Below, piece by piece: positions 45,686 through 53,869 of a DNA stretch of 64,000 nt. The first letter of the stretch is position 1; each line of letters opens with the position of its first letter. The DNA lies in NCBI GenBank assembly GCA_024958715.1, contig JANWUS010000058.1, forward strand, positions 1-64,000, given 5' to 3'. The notes under the pieces were generated by a model, which was given only the letters and a program-made list of their open reading frames with translations, did no database searches and was not told where the DNA came from. The translations under genes were made by a program, and so were the position numbers. The DNA is from Cyanobium sp. FGCU52 (lineage in GTDB: Bacteria > Cyanobacteriota > Cyanobacteriia > PCC-6307 > Cyanobiaceae).

Positions 45686-46369
45686 TCAACCCTGCCCCGG
45701 CCACTCCCGCACCGGGGGATCCGACCCCTGGGGCTGGGTGCTGAGCCAGAGCAGGGCGGCCTGGGTGCGGTTGCTCACCCGCAGCTTCTGGAGCACCAGA
45801 TGCACGTGGCTGCGCACCGTGCCCTCGCCGATGCCCAGCCGCTGGGCGATCGCCCGGTTGCCCAGGCCGGCGGCCAGCTGGGCCAGCACCTCCCGTTCCC
45901 GGGACGTGAGGGTGTCCAGCAGGGTGGCGGCTGACCCTGCTTCCTTGGCGGTCAGCGGCGGCCGGGAGCCGGCCTGCAGGATGGTCGTGGCCTTGTGGTC
46001 CCACCAGCTGGCACCGGCCCGCAGGGAGGTGATGGCGAGCTCCACCTGCTCGAAGGCCTGGCCCTTGTGCAGGTAGCCCCGGGCGCCCGCCTGCCAGATC
46101 TGCTGCACCCAGTGTGGATCCTCCTGGCTGGTGAGGATCAGCACCGGCAACCCAATGCCCGCGCTGATGCGCCGGCAGGTTTCCAGGCCCCCCAGGCCCG
46201 GCAGCACCAGATCGAGCAGCACCAGATCGGTGCCGACGGCCGCCATCAGCTCGAGGCCCTGTTCCCCGTCTCCCGCCACCAGAACCTCCCGCACCCCTGC
46301 CAGCTGCCGGAGGTGGGACGCCATCGCCAGCCGGTAGGCGTCGTCGTCCTCGATCAGCAGCAGCCTCAT
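45686..46369 (-). CDS. NarL/LuxR-type response regulator
   Basis: LLLIEDDDAYRLAMASHLRQ receiver, LVLLDLVLPGLGG, C-terminal LTSREREVLAQLAAGLGNRAIAQRLGIGEGTVRSHVHLVLQKLRVSNRTQAAL. Confidence 0.92.
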   Translation of the reverse strand: MRLLLIEDDDAYRLAMASHLRQLAGVREVLVAGDGEQGLELMAAVGTDLVLLDLVLPGLGGLETCRRISAGIGLPVLILTSQEDPHWVQQIWQAGARGYLHKGQAFEQVELAITSLRAGASWWDHKATTILQAGSRPPLTAKEAGSAATLLDTLTSREREVLAQLAAGLGNRAIAQRLGIGEGTVRSHVHLVLQKLRVSNRTQAALLWLSTQPQGSDPPVREWPGQG

Positions 46370-47373
46370 GGCCTGGGCTCCGCCAGCGGCAGTTCCACCA
46401 TCACCCTGGCCCCTCCCCCCGGACCATTGGCGGCCTGGATGGTGCCCCCGTGGGCTTCAGCGATCAGGCGGCAGAGGTAGAGGCCAAGGCCTGCCCCACG
46501 GCTTCCATTCGGGCTGTGGTGAAAGCGGTGGAATAGCTCCGGCAGATCCTGGGGCGTGAAACCCGGCCCCCCATCGCGCACCTCCATCCGCAGGGCGTGG
46601 GGCTCCCGACGCAGCTGCAGCCATACCCGCTGTCCCCGCAGGCTGTGGTGAAGGGCGTTGAGCAGCAGGTTCTCCAGCAACCGCTGCAGCAGGGAGGGAT
46701 CGGCCCGCAGATCCAGATGGCTGCGGCGTTCCTGCTGCAGCACCAGGGTGATCCGCCGTTCCGCGGCGATCGGCTCCACCGTGCGCAGGGCATCCTCGGC
46801 AATGGCGAGCAGGTTGCAGGGTTGGGGATCCAGCGGCAGACCCTCCTGCTCGGCGCGGAACACCTGGAGCAGGTCCTCGATCAGGCGCAGGCTGCGCTGC
46901 TGGCTGCTGCGGATGGCCGCCGCCACCGGGCTGCTCTCCAGCAGCGGCAGGGAGGCCAGCGTTCCCAGCACCGGCGTCTTGAGGTCGTGGGCGAGGGTGG
47001 CGATCACGTCACCGCGCAGCTGGGAGCGGGCCAATTCCACCTCCAGGGCCGTGCGCTGCCGCTGCAGCTCCCGGTTGCGCACCAGCAGAACGGTGGTGAC
47101 CACGAGGGCCAGGCAGACCAGCAGGCGGTTCATCAACACCGCTCCCAGGTGTTGATGCACCGGCAGGGGCACCAGCAGATTGCTGAGGGTGGAGGCGCAG
47201 CAGAGCAGCAGGAAGCGCCAGGCCTGCCGGGTTGTTCGCTGGGAGGCCCCGAGCAGCAGGGGCACCACGTAGAGAATGCCGAACACCACCGCGGGGGGTG
47301 TGGCCAGCTCCATCAGCAGAATCGTCAGCCAGATCAACCAGACGACGGCCGTCGGCAGGGCGAAGGCCTTCAC
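46366..47373 (-). CDS. Membrane sensor histidine kinase lacking KdpD N-terminal domains
   Basis: GTG at 47373 overlaps the kdpD-like stop; TM helices, H-box AHDLKTPVLGTLASL, RDGGPGFTPQDLPELFHRFHHSPNGSRGAGLGLYLCRLIAEAHGG; stop overlaps regulator start (ATGA). Confidence 0.9.
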   Translation of the reverse strand: MKAFALPTAVVWLIWLTILLMELATPPAVVFGILYVVPLLLGASQRTTRQAWRFLLLCCASTLSNLLVPLPVHQHLGAVLMNRLLVCLALVVTTVLLVRNRELQRQRTALEVELARSQLRGDVIATLAHDLKTPVLGTLASLPLLESSPVAAAIRSSQQRSLRLIEDLLQVFRAEQEGLPLDPQPCNLLAIAEDALRTVEPIAAERRITLVLQQERRSHLDLRADPSLLQRLLENLLLNALHHSLRGQRVWLQLRREPHALRMEVRDGGPGFTPQDLPELFHRFHHSPNGSRGAGLGLYLCRLIAEAHGGTIQAANGPGGGARVMVELPLAEPRP

Positions 47374-48470
47374 ACGTCCTCGTTCGTTGGCTGCGCCGGC
47401 AGTCCTTCGGAGATCAGGTGCAGATCGATGCTGAGCCCGCGCAGCTGGTGCTGCAGGCGCTCCGACAGGGGACGCCGGAACAGGGCCCTGAGCGGGGAGC
47501 GCATCGTCTGGCCCAGCACGATCTGGGTGATGCGCTTCTCCCGGGCCACCTGGGCGATCGCCGGCAGGATGTCGCTGCTCTCCACCCGCAGGAAGGTTCC
47601 GCCCACGTCTTCGCAGAGTTGCTGGCACTGCTCCTGGATCAGGGATTCCTCGCGGCTGAGGAAGCGGTTGGGGTCGTGCACGGTGAGGGCGAGCAGCGGG
47701 GCATCCATGGCGGCGGCCAGCCGGGCTGCCCGGCGCAGCAGCCGTTTGCCGGTGCGGTAGTTGGCCAGGCACACCATCACCCGTTCCCGCAGCGGCGCAC
47801 TGCTGGGCAGCACATCGTTCTCCACCCGATCCGCCACTTCCCGCAGCGAGAGTTCGCGCAGGGCCACCAGATGGCGGCGCTGGAAGAAGTGGGCCAGGGC
47901 CTGGCCCACCTTCTCCGGGGCATACACCTTCCCCTCCCGCAGACGCTCCTGCAGGGTCTCCGGCGTCACGTCCACCAGCACCACCTCATCCGCCTGTTCC
48001 AGCACCCGGTTGGGGATGCGCTCGCGCACCACCACCCCCGTGAGTTCGGCCACCAGGTCGTTGAGGCTCTCCAGGTGCTGGATGTTCAGCGTGGAGTACA
48101 CGTCCAGCCCCGAGAGCAGCAGGGCCTCCACGTCCTGCCAGCGCTTCTGGCGCTCGCTGCCGGGCACGTTGGTGTGCGCCAGTTCGTCCACCAGCACCAG
48201 CTGGGGACGCCGGGCCAGCACCGCGCCCACGTCCATCTCCTCTAGCTCGACGCCCTGGTAGCGCAGGTGCTTGCGGGGCACCATCTCAAGCCCTTCCGCC
48301 TCCCGCAGGGTGTCCGCACGCCCATGGGTCTCCAGCAGGCCGATCACCACATCGGTGCCGTCGCGGCGGGCCTCCTTGCCCTCCTGCAGCATGCGGCAGG
48401 TCTTGCCCACCCCGGGCGCCATGCCGATGAACACCTTGTGGCGGCCGCGGCGGTGGGTGGAGCGGATCAC
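47370..48470 (-). CDS. kdpD: Truncated KdpD: N-terminal KdpD plus Usp-like domains, no kinase core
   Basis: HKVFIGMAPGVGKTCRMLQEGKEARRDGTDVVIGLLETHGR, LVLVDELAHTNVPGSERQKRWQDVEALLLSGLDVYSTLNIQHLESLNDLV; Usp-like C-terminal part; GTG start overlaps the kdpC stop. Confidence 0.92.
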   Translation of the reverse strand: MIRSTHRRGRHKVFIGMAPGVGKTCRMLQEGKEARRDGTDVVIGLLETHGRADTLREAEGLEMVPRKHLRYQGVELEEMDVGAVLARRPQLVLVDELAHTNVPGSERQKRWQDVEALLLSGLDVYSTLNIQHLESLNDLVAELTGVVVRERIPNRVLEQADEVVLVDVTPETLQERLREGKVYAPEKVGQALAHFFQRRHLVALRELSLREVADRVENDVLPSSAPLRERVMVCLANYRTGKRLLRRAARLAAAMDAPLLALTVHDPNRFLSREESLIQEQCQQLCEDVGGTFLRVESSDILPAIAQVAREKRITQIVLGQTMRSPLRALFRRPLSERLQHQLRGLSIDLHLISEGLPAQPTNEDV

Positions 48471-49027
48471 GGCGCCGGCGGGGCGTCGCTGCCCCCAGGG
48501 AGGTTGTCGAGCGCCAGGTTGAAGGCCAGCACGTTCACCACCGGCTCGATCGACTGGCCCCCCCAAGGGCCCTGCTGATGCTCGCGCAGAAGGGCATGGA
48601 GTTGCTGCTCGCTCACCCCCCTCGCCCGGGCCAGGGCGGGGATCTGTTGGCGAGCGGCCGTCAGGCTGACGTGGGGATCGACACCCGAACCGGAATCCAG
48701 CAGCAGATCCGGGGCCGGGTTCCTGATCCCGGCCTTTTGCCAGCGGCTGGAGGCGGCGCCGACCCGGGCCGCCAGCTCAGGGTTGCTGGGAGCAAGATTC
48801 GGGGCACCGGCGGGTCGTCCCTGCAGATAGCGGTTCGTGCTGAAGGGCTGGCCGATCAGCCGGGAGCCGACGACCGAACCGTTGCGGACGAGCAGGCTGC
48901 CCTCCGCCTGCTCCGGTGCCACAAGCCGGGCAAGGCCCAGCATCGGCAGGGTGATCACCACCACGGTGAGGAACCAGAGCGCGGATGTGAGACGCAGACC
49001 GCGCAACACTTGCGAACTCAGTTTCAT
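48467..49027 (-). CDS. kdpC: Potassium-transporting ATPase subunit C
   Basis: GSLLVRNGSVVGSRLIGQPFSTNRYLQGRPA...DSGSGVDPHVSLTAARQQIPALARARG. Confidence 0.93.
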   Translation of the reverse strand: MKLSSQVLRGLRLTSALWFLTVVVITLPMLGLARLVAPEQAEGSLLVRNGSVVGSRLIGQPFSTNRYLQGRPAGAPNLAPSNPELAARVGAASSRWQKAGIRNPAPDLLLDSGSGVDPHVSLTAARQQIPALARARGVSEQQLHALLREHQQGPWGGQSIEPVVNVLAFNLALDNLPGGSDAPPAP

Positions 49028-49215
49028 CAGAATTTCTCCGGTTGGGCGATCACGGCGAACAGGTAGCCCGAGAGGGCCACCGTGCCGCTGAGCAGAAGGG
49101 CGAGCGCATGGCTCTGAAGGGCTGGCTGGCTGCCGCGGAACAGGGGCGCAACCAGCAGGGTGCCGGCGGTGATCAGCAACGGCAGCCAGAAGCGGGAACG
49201 CATCAGAACAGACAT
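49027..49215 (-). CDS. KdpF/KdpG-like small membrane subunit
   Basis: Two predicted TM helices, C-terminal SGYLFAVIAQPEKF resembling the KdpF terminus; located between kdpB and kdpC. Confidence 0.7.
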   Translation of the reverse strand: MSVLMRSRFWLPLLITAGTLLVAPLFRGSQPALQSHALALLLSGTVALSGYLFAVIAQPEKF

Positions 49216-49237
49216 CAGGGGGACCTCAGGGGGGACT

Positions 49238-51334
49238 TCAGACCAGTCGCAGGACGCCAAGCACCAGATCGATCGCCTTGATGCCGATGAAGGGGCTCAC
49301 CACACCGCCGACGCCGAAGATGAGCAGGTTGCGGCGCAGCAGCTGCTCGGCGCTCAGGGGCCTGAACTGCACGCCGCGCAGGGCCAGCGGCACCAGGGCC
49401 GGAATGATCAGGGCGTTGAACACCATCGCCGAGAGAATGGCGGAGCGGGGTGAGGCGAGCCCCATCACGTTCAGGGACGCAAGACCCACCCCGGCGAACA
49501 GGGCCGGCAGGATCGCGAAGTACTTGGCGATGTCGTTGGCGATGGAGAACGTGGTGAGCGCACCGCGGGTGATCAGCAGCTGCTTCCCGATCGTCACGAT
49601 GTCGATCAGCTTGGTGGGATCGCTGTCGAGATCCACCATGTTGGCCGCTTCCTTGGCGGCCTGAGTGCCGGAGTTCATCGCCACCCCCACGTTGGCCTGG
49701 GCCAGGGCCGGGGCGTCGTTGGAGCCGTCGCCGGTCATGGCCACCAGCTTGCCGAGCTTCTGCTCCCGTTCGATCACGGCGATCTTGTCTTCGGGGGTGG
49801 CCTCGGCGATGAAGTCGTCCACCCCGGCTTCGCGCGCGATCACGCCGGCGGTGATCGGGTTGTCGCCGGTGAGCATCACCGTGCGGATGCCCATGCGGCG
49901 CAGCTGATCGAAGCGCTCGCGGATGCCGGGTTTGATGATGTCCTTGAGGTAGATGACTCCGAACACCTCGGCGCCGCGGCATACGGCAAGCGGAGTGCCG
50001 CCCACCCGCGACACCTGCTCGAAGGCCGCATCCAGATCCTCGGGAACCTGGCCGCCGCGGGAGCGCACGAATCCCTTGATCGCATCCACGGCCCCCTTGC
50101 GGAACTCGCTGCCGTCCGGGGCATCGCTGCCGCTCATGCGGGTGCGGGCCGAAAAGTCGATGCCGCGGGCAGCCTCGGCGGTGAAGGGCAGGGTGGCGGC
50201 CTGCTTCTCGGCCAGCCGCACGATCGAGCGCCCCTCGGGGGTCTGGTCGAAGCAGCTGGCGCCGTAGGCCACCGCCGCGAGTTCGGCGGCCGTGTGCCCA
50301 CCGACGGGCAGGAATTCCTCCGCCAGCCGGTTGCCCAGCGTGATGGTGCCCGTCTTGTCGAGCACCAGCGTGTTCACGTCGCCGCAGACCTCCACGGCCC
50401 GGCCCGAGGTGGCGATCACGTTGAACTGGGCCACCCGGTCCATGCCGGCGATGCCGATGGCGCTCAGCAGTCCGCCGATGGTGGTGGGGATCAGCGCCAC
50501 CAGCAGGGCCACCAGGGTGACCACCGAAGGGGCCTGCTTGAGGTGGCCGGCCACCGGCGGCAGGGTGGCCACGGCGATCAGGAACACCTGGGTGAGCACC
50601 GCCAGCAGCACCGTGAGGGCGATCTCGTTGGGGGTCTTGGTGCGCTCGGCACCCTCAACCAGGGCGATCATGCGATCGATGAAGCCCTTGCCCGGGTCGG
50701 CGCTGATCCGCAGGGTGAGCTGATCCGAGAGGATCCGGGTGCCGCCCGTGACCGAGCCGGCCACATCGGAGCCGGCTTCCTTGAGCACCGGTGCCGATTC
50801 GCCGGTGATCGCCGACTCATCCACCGACGCCACCCCCGCGATCACCTCCCCGTCGGCGGGGATCAGATCGCCGGCCTTGACCAGCACCACATCACCGCGG
50901 CGCAGATCGGAGGAATCCACCAGTCGCTCGCCCCCGCCCTCCAGCTGCAGCAGGGCCTGGGTGCGGGCCTGGGTGCGGCGCAGGGCATCGGCCTGGGCCT
51001 TGCCCCTGCCTTCGGCGAGCGCCTCGGCGAAGTTGGCGAACAGGAGTGTGGCCAGCAGCGTGAGGCTGACCATGGCGTTGAAACCCCGTTCCCCGGCCGG
51101 AGCGCCGGCATCGAGGAGGTTGGGCAGCAGGGTGAGCAGCAGGCACAGGGCGGTGCCGCACCACACCACGAACATCACCGGATTGGCGACCGCCAGCCTG
51201 GGGTCGAGCTTGCGCACGGATTCCACCATGGCCCGATGCACCAGACCCTGCTGGCGCGGGCGTTCGGTGTAGCGGCGCTGGTCGCGGGGTCCCCGCGGCA
51301 TGCGGGGGAACTGGACGAGAGAGGACAACGTCAT
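49238..51334 (-). CDS. kdpB: Potassium-transporting ATPase subunit B
   Basis: P-type ATPase phosphorylation motif [50 protein letters not shown]. Confidence 0.97.
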
Positions 51335-51338
51335 GGGG

Positions 51339-53018
51339 TCAGGAGGCCAGGGTGAGCGCTTCGGCGATCGGCCCGAGGGCCAGCACCGGGAAGAACGTGA
51401 GGGCGCCCAGGATCACCACCACCACGGCCGTCACCCCGGTGAACAGCGGGGTGTCGGTGCGCAGGGAGCCGGGCCCGGCCTCGAGGGCAGGCTTGCGGCG
51501 GAAGCCATCGGCCAGCGCCAGCAGGGCAGCGATCGGCAGATAGCGCCCGCCGAGCAGGCTCACGCTGGTCGACAGGTTCCACCAGAGGCTGCCATCGGCC
51601 AGCCCCTCCATGCCGCTGCCGTTGTTGGCGGCCGCGGAGGCGTACTCGTACACCACCTGGCTGATGCCATGGGAGCCGGGATTGCTGATGCCGGCGAGCT
51701 CGGCGCTGCCCGCCAGGGTGATGGCGGCGGGGATCAGCACGAACACCGGGTGGATCAGCAACACGAAGCTCGCCCACACCACCTGGGGCTTCTCCACCTT
51801 GCGGCCGAGGAACTCCGGCGTGCGTCCCACCATCAGGCCGGTGAGGAACACCGCCAGCAGCAGAAACACCAGCAGGTAGGCGATACCGGTGCCCTGGCCG
51901 CCGAACACCACCTGCAGGAACAGGTTCGAGAGCGCCACCAGCAGGCTGGTGGGCATCAGGGCATCGATGGCGCCGTTGATCGCTCCGGTCATGGTTCCGG
52001 TGGTCACCACCGACCACAGCCCGGTGAGCCCGGCGCCGAAGCGCAGCTCCTTGCCCTGCAGATTCGGGCCGTTGAGCCATGGGGCGAGCACGGGATTGCC
52101 CGCCTGCTCCGCCGCCATGGCCACGGCGGCACCGATCACCAGCAGCACCAGCACCAGCGCCAGCAGCCAGGTGCTCTGGCGGCGGTTGCCGCAGAAGCGT
52201 CCGAAGGCGTCGATGGTGGCCGCCGGGATGATCAGCATCGCCCAGGTCTGAACCAGGTTGGTGAGCAGGGTGGGGTTCTCGTAGGGGTGGCCGGAGTTGG
52301 CCGACACAAAGCCGCCTCCGTTCTCACCGAGTTGCTTGATCGCCTCGTACAGGGCGATCGGCCCGCGGGGCAGCAACTGCCGGGCCCCCTCCAGGCTGGT
52401 GATCTCCAGGGGCGGAGCCAGGGTCATCGGCACCCCGCTCACCAGCAGAAACAGGGCCAGCGCCAGGCTGCCGGGGATCAGCACCCGGGTGAGGGACCGC
52501 ACCAGATCGCGGTGGGCGTTGCCCAGGGGGCGCCCCGTGAGGCCGCGGATCACCGCGAACCCCACCGCCAGCCCCGTGGCTGACGACACGAACATCAGGA
52601 ACTGGATGGCTCCGAGCTGCGCCAGGTTGCCGAGGCTCTGCTCCGGCACCAGGTGCTGCTGGTCGGTGTTGGTGAGAAACGAGAGGGTGGTGTGCAGGGC
52701 CAGGTCCCAGCGGAGCCCGGGAAAGCCCTGGGGGTTCAGCCAACCCGGCTGCAGCAGCAGCAGCAGGAAGGCCACCAGGCCGAACACCAGGTTGGCCATG
52801 ACAAGGGGCAGCAGATAGCCCCAGAGGGAATCGGCGGGGCGACCGTTGTCCCCGATCCAGCGCAGCAGGCGGGTTTCCACGGGCTGCAGCCAGCGGTCCC
52901 ACGCCGGCTGTGGATGGTCATCGAAGACCTCGTACAGGTGGCGTCCGACCGCCGGGGCCGTGAGCACGACGGCCGCCAGGGTGAGGACGGCCAGCATCCA
53001 GGCGAGCACAGGCAGCAA
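51339..53018 (-). CDS. kdpA: Potassium-transporting ATPase subunit A (TTG 53018 or ATG 52997 start)
   Basis: [80 protein letters not shown]. Confidence 0.97.
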
Positions 53019-53182
53019 TCAGGGGCGGGATCCACGCTCGCCGGCCCCGCTCCCGGACGACAACTGCCGAATGGCAGAGATGGGGGATGGGTCCGAGTCC
53101 CGACTGCCGCGACTGGCCGGTGTGCTCCCCGGGACTGGGTGGACTGGGTAGGGTTCACTCTTCCCTGAACCCAGGTTCCCCC

Positions 53183-53869
53183 GTGACATCCACCCTGGAC
53201 GCCACCACCGCCGCTCCCCTGGTTCCCGGCAGCGATGCCACCGCGGCGTTCCGTGCTGCCTATGAGAACCGCTACACCTGGGAGCCCGGTTTCGGTGGCT
53301 ACTGCGGCCGCTGCGTGTGGGAGCAGGGCGATCGCCGGGTGGAGGGCAGCTTCACCGTGGGTGCCGACCTCAAGGCCCAGGTGGAGGGCATCGACGATCC
53401 GGAGGTGCACAAGGCCGTCGCCTCCCAGCTGTGGGAGGTGGCGATCCACCGGGTGCGCCGCAGCTTCGAGCAGACCCACGGCGAGAACACCTTCACCGCC
53501 GGTGACACCGACGCGGTGGGCACCGAGGTGATCGTGGGCGGCAAGGGAGCCGGCGATCGCTACCGCATCCACAACGACGTGGTGACGATGGTGCACCGCC
53601 ACATCCACGGCACGGTGGTGACGATCTTCACCGAGAGCACCATCGATACCGGTGCCGGCTATCTGAGCCGCAGCTACACCAGCCGCTACGCCGATCCCGC
53701 CACCGGCGAGCCCAAAGGGGGCCTGAGCCGCTTCACCGACACCTTCGTGCCCCTGATCGAAGGCGGCCCCTGGGTGCTGAGCGAGCGGGTGGTGGAGAGC
53801 GAAGCCCACGGCGACACCCCTGCCTGGCGGCAGGTGTTCCGCTTCGAGGACCTCGCTCCCCTGACCTGA
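53183..53869 (+). CDS. DUF3386 domain-containing protein
   Basis: GTG at 53183; FRAAYENRYTWEPGFGGYCGRC...EVHKAVASQLWEVAIHRVRRSF. Confidence 0.8.
   Translation: MTSTLDATTAAPLVPGSDATAAFRAAYENRYTWEPGFGGYCGRCVWEQGDRRVEGSFTVGADLKAQVEGIDDPEVHKAVASQLWEVAIHRVRRSFEQTHGENTFTAGDTDAVGTEVIVGGKGAGDRYRIHNDVVTMVHRHIHGTVVTIFTESTIDTGAGYLSRSYTSRYADPATGEPKGGLSRFTDTFVPLIEGGPWVLSERVVESEAHGDTPAWRQVFRFEDLAPLT

What the first reader, a model, noticed from the sequence alone, without database searches (positions are those of the whole stretch)
45686..53018. kdp locus ends in a split sensory module: truncated KdpD, separate histidine kinase, NarL-type regulator
Order on the minus strand is kdpA-kdpB-kdpF/G-like-kdpC-kdpD(N-term+Usp only)-HK-NarL RR. 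Seen directly: kdpC/kdpD and kdpD/HK overlap by GTGA, and HK/RR by ATGA, implying one translationally coupled unit. Established: E. coli KdpD is one protein (KdpD-Usp-TM-kinase) paired with the OmpR-type regulator KdpE; Anabaena kdpABGCD carries a truncated KdpD. Inference: sensing and kinase modules are separated here and recombined in trans, and the output regulator has been replaced by a LuxR/NarL family member.
Basis: partly seen in the sequence, partly recalled or inferred. Interest (0 to 1): 0.72.

Follow-up and report, generated by a model that had tools for sequence, protein, structure and literature searches.

The report
Potassium pump operon with split controls
This freshwater cyanobacterium ends its potassium-pump operon with a short KdpD protein and a separate kinase/NarL-type regulator pair, a control layout already known from Deinococcus and other cyanobacteria, here moved inside the operon and carrying an unusual change in the short KdpD's ATP-binding site.

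Summary
The gene order and the 4-nt overlaps are confirmed: kdpA-B-F/G-C-D(short)-HK-NarL RR, all on the minus strand. The arrangement is not a novelty in kind. The same HK/NarL-RR pair sits next to kdp in many cyanobacteria and in Deinococcota, including D. radiodurans DR_B0082/DR_B0081; DR_B0081 is NarL-type and its deletion abolishes kdp induction (PMC5716572). In a phylum sample every genome with this HK has kdp genes, but 20 genomes have short KdpD without the HK, and several relatives lost HK-RR and kept KdpD. So 'sensor and kinase recombined in trans' is not favoured. Short KdpD is best read as the stand-alone serine kinase that switches off KdpB (PMC11018627); HK-RR controls transcription, probably through a dyad 58-68 bp before kdpA in 21/21 linked picocyanobacterial loci. 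New here: in one picocyanobacterial clade HK-RR left its usual divergent position and joined the operon end. In that clade the KdpD aromatic that contacts ATP's adenine (E. coli W39) became cysteine (Cys25); all other KdpDs examined have Y/F/W. The window's subclade also lost the c-di-AMP-pocket serine. Whether its serine kinase still works, or now serves the HK, is open.

The parts
51339..53009 (-). kdpA (probable GTG start at 53009; ORF as listed runs to TTG 53018)
   Evidence: Pfam KdpA 1.5e-194; start by alignment with relatives
49238..51334 (-). kdpB; TGES motif with the target serine of KdpD's serine kinase (S180, E. coli S162)
   Evidence: Pfam E1-E2_ATPase/Hydrolase; TGES at residue 177
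49027..49215 (-). kdpF/G-like small subunit (ATG 49215; the longest ORF starts at TTG 49260)
   Evidence: Pfam Potass_KdpF 1.2e-4; conserved in relatives
48467..49027 (-). kdpC
   Evidence: Pfam KdpC 2e-44
47370..48470 (-). Short KdpD: KdpD ATP-binding (serine-kinase) domain plus Usp, no TM, no histidine kinase. Walker A GKT 22-24, Cys25 in place of the aromatic, Walker B DE 95-96, R176
   Evidence: Pfam KdpD 1e-95, Usp 9e-9; residue mapping to E. coli KdpD
46366..47373 (-). Separate membrane histidine kinase (about 4 TM, HisKA H129, HATPase_c)
   Evidence: Pfam, hydropathy, orthologs, model pLDDT 83
45686..46369 (-). NarL/LuxR-type response regulator (REC with D53, GerE)
   Evidence: Pfam Response_reg 2.7e-19, GerE 6e-18; clade with DR_B0081
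53061..53077 (-). Candidate RR operator CTGCC-ATTC-GGCAG-TTG upstream of kdpA
   Evidence: Dyad at -58..-68 in 21/21 HK-RR-linked picocyanobacterial kdp loci, 0.8 expected; only exact match of its pattern in the genome

Best explanation
A Kdp potassium pump with two separate control arms in one operon. Arm 1, transcription: the membrane HK responds to low K+ or a correlate, phosphorylates the NarL-type RR, and the RR binds the dyad before kdpA to turn the operon on, including its own gene. Arm 2, pump activity: short KdpD uses its Walker A/B site as an atypical serine kinase that phosphorylates the TGES serine of KdpB and shuts the pump when K+ is ample. Known in kind from D. radiodurans (RR arm) and D. 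geothermalis/E. coli (serine-kinase arm). The clade-specific step is that HK-RR moved from a divergent position into the operon end, so the regulator is made with the pump and likely autoregulates. Shown here: anatomy, orthology, co-occurrence, conserved dyad, catalytic residues. Inferred: phosphotransfer, RR-dyad binding, the signal, co-transcription, and that the kinase still works with Cys25.
For: RR/HK are orthologs of DR_B0081/82 and of kdp-adjacent pairs across cyanobacteria; the D. radiodurans dRR mutant fails to induce kdp and its RR binds the kdp promoter (PMC5716572). The HK occurs in 65 of 386 phylum genomes; 64 have short KdpD and the 65th has kdpA-kdpB beside the HK at a contig end. 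In the genus 15/15 HK genomes have kdpD and 0/25 kdpD-less genomes have the HK. Dyad at fixed position in 21/21 linked loci with diverged flanks. KdpD Walker A/B and R190, and KdpB TGES, are kept; short KdpD is a c-di-AMP-stimulated serine kinase on KdpB in D. geothermalis (PMC11018627). KdpD stands without HK in 20 phylum genomes.
Against: The adenine-contact residue (E. coli W39; the W39A/R190A double mutant is nearly dead) is Cys in this clade and the c-di-AMP-pocket serine is Ala in the window, so the serine kinase may be weak, differently controlled or lost. The tight kdpD-HK overlap in 15/16 relatives would fit a physical partnership too. The dyad pattern was derived from the same sequences and was not found in other cyanobacteria or D. 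radiodurans. Two relatives without HK-RR give no clear dyad-loss signal (L034 weak match, L166 none).
Confidence: 0.66

Rival explanations
1. One reading: KdpD is a split two-component sensor. Short KdpD binds the HK in trans and supplies the sensing input, so the pair rebuilds an E. coli-like KdpD.
For: Translational coupling of kdpD and HK conserved in the clade. In E. coli the N-terminal domain affects the kinase/phosphatase balance (PMC11018627). HK found only with kdp genes.
Against: In most cyanobacteria the HK is divergent from, or far from, kdpD (40 divergent, 19 elsewhere, 4 same strand). Short KdpD persists without the HK in 20 phylum genomes and in lineages that lost it. HK lacks DUF4118/GAF.
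Confidence: 0.17
2. In this clade short KdpD has lost or changed its serine-kinase function (Cys25, loss of the c-di-AMP serine) and now acts only as a nucleotide-binding accessory of the pump or of the HK.
For: Aromatic residue kept in every KdpD outside the clade, C in 31 of 102 rows, all of this clade. S244-equivalent is A/G in the window subclade, and S244A abolishes c-di-AMP binding in S. aureus KdpD (PMC8214093). Cys arose on the same branch as the HK-RR move.
Against: Walker A/B and R190 invariant; KdpD 84-89% identical within the subclade, about as constrained as KdpB. One coincidence on one branch; another cyanobacterium with same-strand HK-RR keeps Tyr (G409).
Confidence: 0.2
3. HK-RR is an unrelated two-component pair that happens to lie after kdp and controls other genes.
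For: No direct expression data for this organism.
Against: Phylum-wide co-occurrence (64 of 65, plus a kdp fragment in the 65th), adjacency in two different layouts, D. radiodurans genetics, and a single exact dyad site in the genome, before kdpA.
Confidence: 0.04

Closest known systems
D. radiodurans kdp system (DR_B0081 RR, DR_B0082 SK, kdpBAC, kdpD-N), PMC5716572
   Same: Short KdpD (KdpD+Usp), separate HisKA kinase, RR with REC+GerE; HK and RR in one clade with the window's
   Different: SK-RR operon is divergent and upstream; the HK is longer (515 aa); kdpBAC order; Tyr at the W39 position
Cyanobacterial kdp loci with divergent HK-RR (Picosynechococcus 7002 pAQ7, Trichormus variabilis plasmid A, Synechocystis 6714, Nodosilinea, and picocyanobacterial clade I)
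   Same: Orthologous HK, NarL RR and short KdpD
   Different: HK-RR lie on the opposite strand before kdpA; aromatic residue kept in KdpD; c-di-AMP serine kept
D. geothermalis short KdpD (DgKdpD), PMC11018627
   Same: KdpD+Usp only; Walker A/B serine-kinase site; KdpB target serine present
   Different: DgKdpD is shown to be c-di-AMP-stimulated; the window's protein lacks the key Usp serine and has Cys at the W39 position
E. coli KdpD/KdpE
   Same: KdpD domain and Usp homologous; controls a kdpFABC operon
   Different: One 894-aa tandem serine/histidine kinase with DUF4118 and GAF; OmpR-type KdpE
NCBIfam NF038185 KdpD_non_kinase
   Same: Best NCBIfam match of the short KdpD, almost full length (374.6 bits)
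   Different: Below that model's cut-off of 550

Membership tests
Short KdpD atypical serine kinase (DgKdpD type) | KdpD domain plus Usp, no TM/GAF/DHpCA | tested here: met
   Pfam
Short KdpD atypical serine kinase (DgKdpD type) | Walker A GKT and Walker B DE | tested here: met
   Residues 22-24 and 95-96, invariant apart from T/S in 102 rows
Short KdpD atypical serine kinase (DgKdpD type) | Adenine-contact aromatic/arginine pair (W39/R190) | tested here: not met
   R176 kept, but Cys25 replaces the aromatic
Short KdpD atypical serine kinase (DgKdpD type) | c-di-AMP motif (A/G/C)xSxSx2N(Y/F) in Usp | tested here: not met
   Window CLANYRTGK: first Ser is Ala; other cyanobacteria keep that Ser but not the full motif; genome has a diadenylate cyclase
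Short KdpD atypical serine kinase (DgKdpD type) | Target serine in KdpB TGES | tested here: met
   KdpB TGES at 177-180
Short KdpD atypical serine kinase (DgKdpD type) | Phosphorylates KdpB | not testable with these tools
   Needs purified proteins
D. radiodurans-type kdp HK/NarL-RR system | RR and HK orthologous to DR_B0081/DR_B0082 | tested here: met
   Trees
D. radiodurans-type kdp HK/NarL-RR system | Genetic linkage and co-occurrence with kdp | tested here: met
D. radiodurans-type kdp HK/NarL-RR system | RR needed for kdp induction and binds the kdp promoter | not testable with these tools
   Shown in D. radiodurans only (PMC5716572); conserved dyad here
E. coli-type KdpD/KdpE | KdpD histidine-kinase half with DUF4118/GAF, in the same chain or split off | tested here: not met
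   HK has no DUF4118/GAF, hhalign 0.2%; kinase-core kinship not rejected, AU p=0.09
E. coli-type KdpD/KdpE | OmpR/winged-helix regulator KdpE | tested here: not met
   RR is REC+GerE

The most novel reading that the evidence does not exclude
In this picocyanobacterial clade the short KdpD has been rewired. With the adenine-contact aromatic replaced by Cys and, in the window's subclade, the c-di-AMP serine lost, its serine-kinase arm is no longer set by c-di-AMP and instead works through the co-translated HK-RR, or is redox-sensitive through Cys25.
Probability: 0.15. Interest if true: 0.65.

Novelty: new variant of a known kind. Interest (0 to 1): 0.42.

Why it matters
It shows that cyanobacteria and Deinococcota share one kdp control layout in which pump activity and pump transcription are run by separate proteins, unlike the E. 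coli tandem kinase. The clade with the operon-internal HK-RR and the Cys substitution is a natural experiment on how the KdpD serine kinase binds ATP and takes its input, and the conserved dyad gives a concrete binding-site test for a regulator whose operator is not defined at base level.

Tried and rejected
Riboswitch control: no Rfam match at a meaningful score around kdp, so no ydaO. Kinship of HK membrane part with KdpD DUF4118: not found. Firm claim that the HK is not derived from KdpD's C-terminal half: softened, because the AU test gave p=0.09. Functional link between HK-RR relocation and Cys25: only one origin, one revertant without HK-RR (L155, Tyr), other HK-RR losses that keep Cys, and G409 has same-strand HK-RR with Tyr, so treated as a lead. 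Dyad in other cyanobacteria and D. radiodurans: none convincing. No paper on kdp in Cyanobium was found in the held library. The HK structure model was not taken further to a fold search, since its kinase core would dominate the matches.
Full report
WHAT IS THERE. The seven genes are confirmed on the minus strand: kdpA 51339-53009 (probable GTG start), kdpB 49238-51334, kdpF/G-like 49027-49215, kdpC 48467-49027, short kdpD 47370-48470, HK 46366-47373, RR 45686-46369. KdpC/KdpD and KdpD/HK overlap by GTGA and HK/RR by ATGA. In 16 relatives the kdpC/kdpD overlap is kept in all 16, kdpD/HK overlaps in 15, and the HK/RR junction is mostly within a few bases. KdpD has only the KdpD and Usp domains. 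The HK has about four membrane segments, HisKA and HATPase_c with intact catalytic motifs. The RR has REC and GerE, that is, NarL/LuxR type. The genome has one KdpD domain and one diadenylate cyclase.

THE LAYOUT IS WIDESPREAD AND PARTLY CHARACTERISED. Relatives from genome contigs show kdpABGCD-HK-RR in many Cyanobium/Synechococcus/Vulcanococcus genomes. In other cyanobacteria and in Deinococcota the same HK-RR pair sits divergently before the kdp structural genes. D. radiodurans DR_B0081 is also REC+GerE and DR_B0082 a membrane HisKA kinase without DUF4118. Trees put all these RRs in one group (UFBoot 100) and all these HKs in one group. In D. radiodurans the RR deletion abolishes kdp induction at low K+ and the RR binds the kdp promoter (PMC5716572). 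The NarL-type regulator is therefore the normal kdp regulator of these groups, not a local replacement.

CO-OCCURRENCE. In a 386-genome phylum sample 65 genomes have a full-length HK ortholog; 64 of them have short KdpD (Fisher p about 6e-54, not corrected for relatedness), and in the 65th (G242) the HK stands beside kdpA-kdpB at a contig end. Of 63 positioned cases 40 are opposite-strand neighbours (nearly all divergent, about 6-12 kb from kdpD), 4 same strand, 19 elsewhere. Twenty genomes have short KdpD but no HK. In the genus all 15 HK genomes have kdpD, and two kdpD genomes lack the HK. The dependence is one-way: the HK goes with kdp, KdpD does not need the HK.

SHORT KdpD IS BEST READ AS A SERINE KINASE. 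PMC11018627 shows that the KdpD domain is an atypical serine kinase that phosphorylates KdpB S162, that short KdpD of D. geothermalis does this under c-di-AMP stimulation, and that D. radiodurans and Anabaena use a separate two-component system for transcription. The window's KdpD keeps Walker A, Walker B and the R190 equivalent, and KdpB keeps the TGES serine. Its sequence is 84-89% conserved within the subclade, like KdpB.

WHAT IS NEW. A tree of KdpD plus KdpB splits picocyanobacterial kdp into clade I (divergent HK-RR, Phe/Tyr at the E. coli W39 position) and clade II (HK-RR at the operon end, Cys), UFBoot 99-100. Cys occurs in 31 of 102 KdpD rows (some are duplicate contigs), all in this group; the rest are Y, F or W, and some 30 further cyanobacterial KdpDs are also Y/F. 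In E. coli the W39A/R190A double mutant is almost inactive (PMC11018627). In the window's subclade the c-di-AMP-pocket serine (S. aureus S244; PMC8214093) is Ala or Gly; S. elongatus KdpD binds c-di-AMP (PMC5897029). Both changes touch ligand sites of a protein that is otherwise conserved. The tie between Cys and the relocation rests on a single branch: L155 lost HK-RR and has Tyr again, other HK-RR losses keep Cys, and G409 has same-strand HK-RR with Tyr. It is a lead, not a result.

A CANDIDATE OPERATOR. A dyad CTRCC-N4-GGYAG (up to two mismatches) lies 58-68 bp before kdpA in 21/21 HK-RR-linked picocyanobacterial loci (0.8 expected from shuffles), while the adjacent flanks are at background identity. 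In the 15 clade II loci it is followed by TTG. In clade I a second copy lies about 33 bp further upstream in most loci. The pattern extended by TTG has one exact match in the genome, at 53061-53077, and 21 one-mismatch matches against 19 for the reversed control. The pattern was read off these same sequences, so the count is descriptive; it was not seen in Nodosilinea, Picosynechococcus, Trichormus or D. radiodurans.

A split KdpD recombined in trans is disfavoured, not excluded. The HK membrane part is unlike KdpD's, DUF4118/GAF are absent, and KdpD survives without the HK. The kinase core cannot be said to be unrelated to KdpD's (AU p=0.09), and the conserved kdpD-HK overlap leaves room for contact.

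VERDICT. Observation confirmed; interpretation partly supported; new variant of a known kind. The specific new points are the operon-internal HK-RR, the Cys25 substitution with loss of the c-di-AMP serine, and the conserved dyad. Expression, phosphotransfer and binding remain inferred.

Noticed in passing
Phylum sample genomes of family code f38 (G226, G245, G255, G364, G367, G428, G430, G453), e.g. G367:C37:43803-45542: Two KdpD domains about 0.5 kb apart inside one open frame of about 740 aa: apparently a tandem KdpD-Usp-KdpD-Usp protein.
   Followed up: no
L099:3431-4135 (Picosynechococcus 7002 pAQ7): A REC-TPR protein gene is inserted between kdpB and kdpF in the kdp operon.
   Followed up: partly
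L100 (Trichormus variabilis plasmid A) 2438-3559 and 8367-9557: Two short KdpD genes, 49% and 56% identical to the window's, lie near one kdp operon and away from kdpC.
   Followed up: no
L166/L032 (G481): A clade II locus where kdpD is followed directly by kdpA and no kdpB/C or HK-RR is found nearby: a rearranged or broken kdp cluster.
   Followed up: no
L155/L029 (G126): KdpD nested in the Cys clade has Tyr at the position again and its genome has lost HK-RR.
   Followed up: partly
L216 (G409): HK-RR on the same strand about 2 kb downstream of kdpD in a distant cyanobacterium, with Tyr retained: a separate case of same-strand layout.
   Followed up: partly
53087-53869 +: A DUF3386 gene is divergent from kdpA here; other clade II loci have different upstream neighbours, so the shared dyad is not explained by that gene.
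   Followed up: partly
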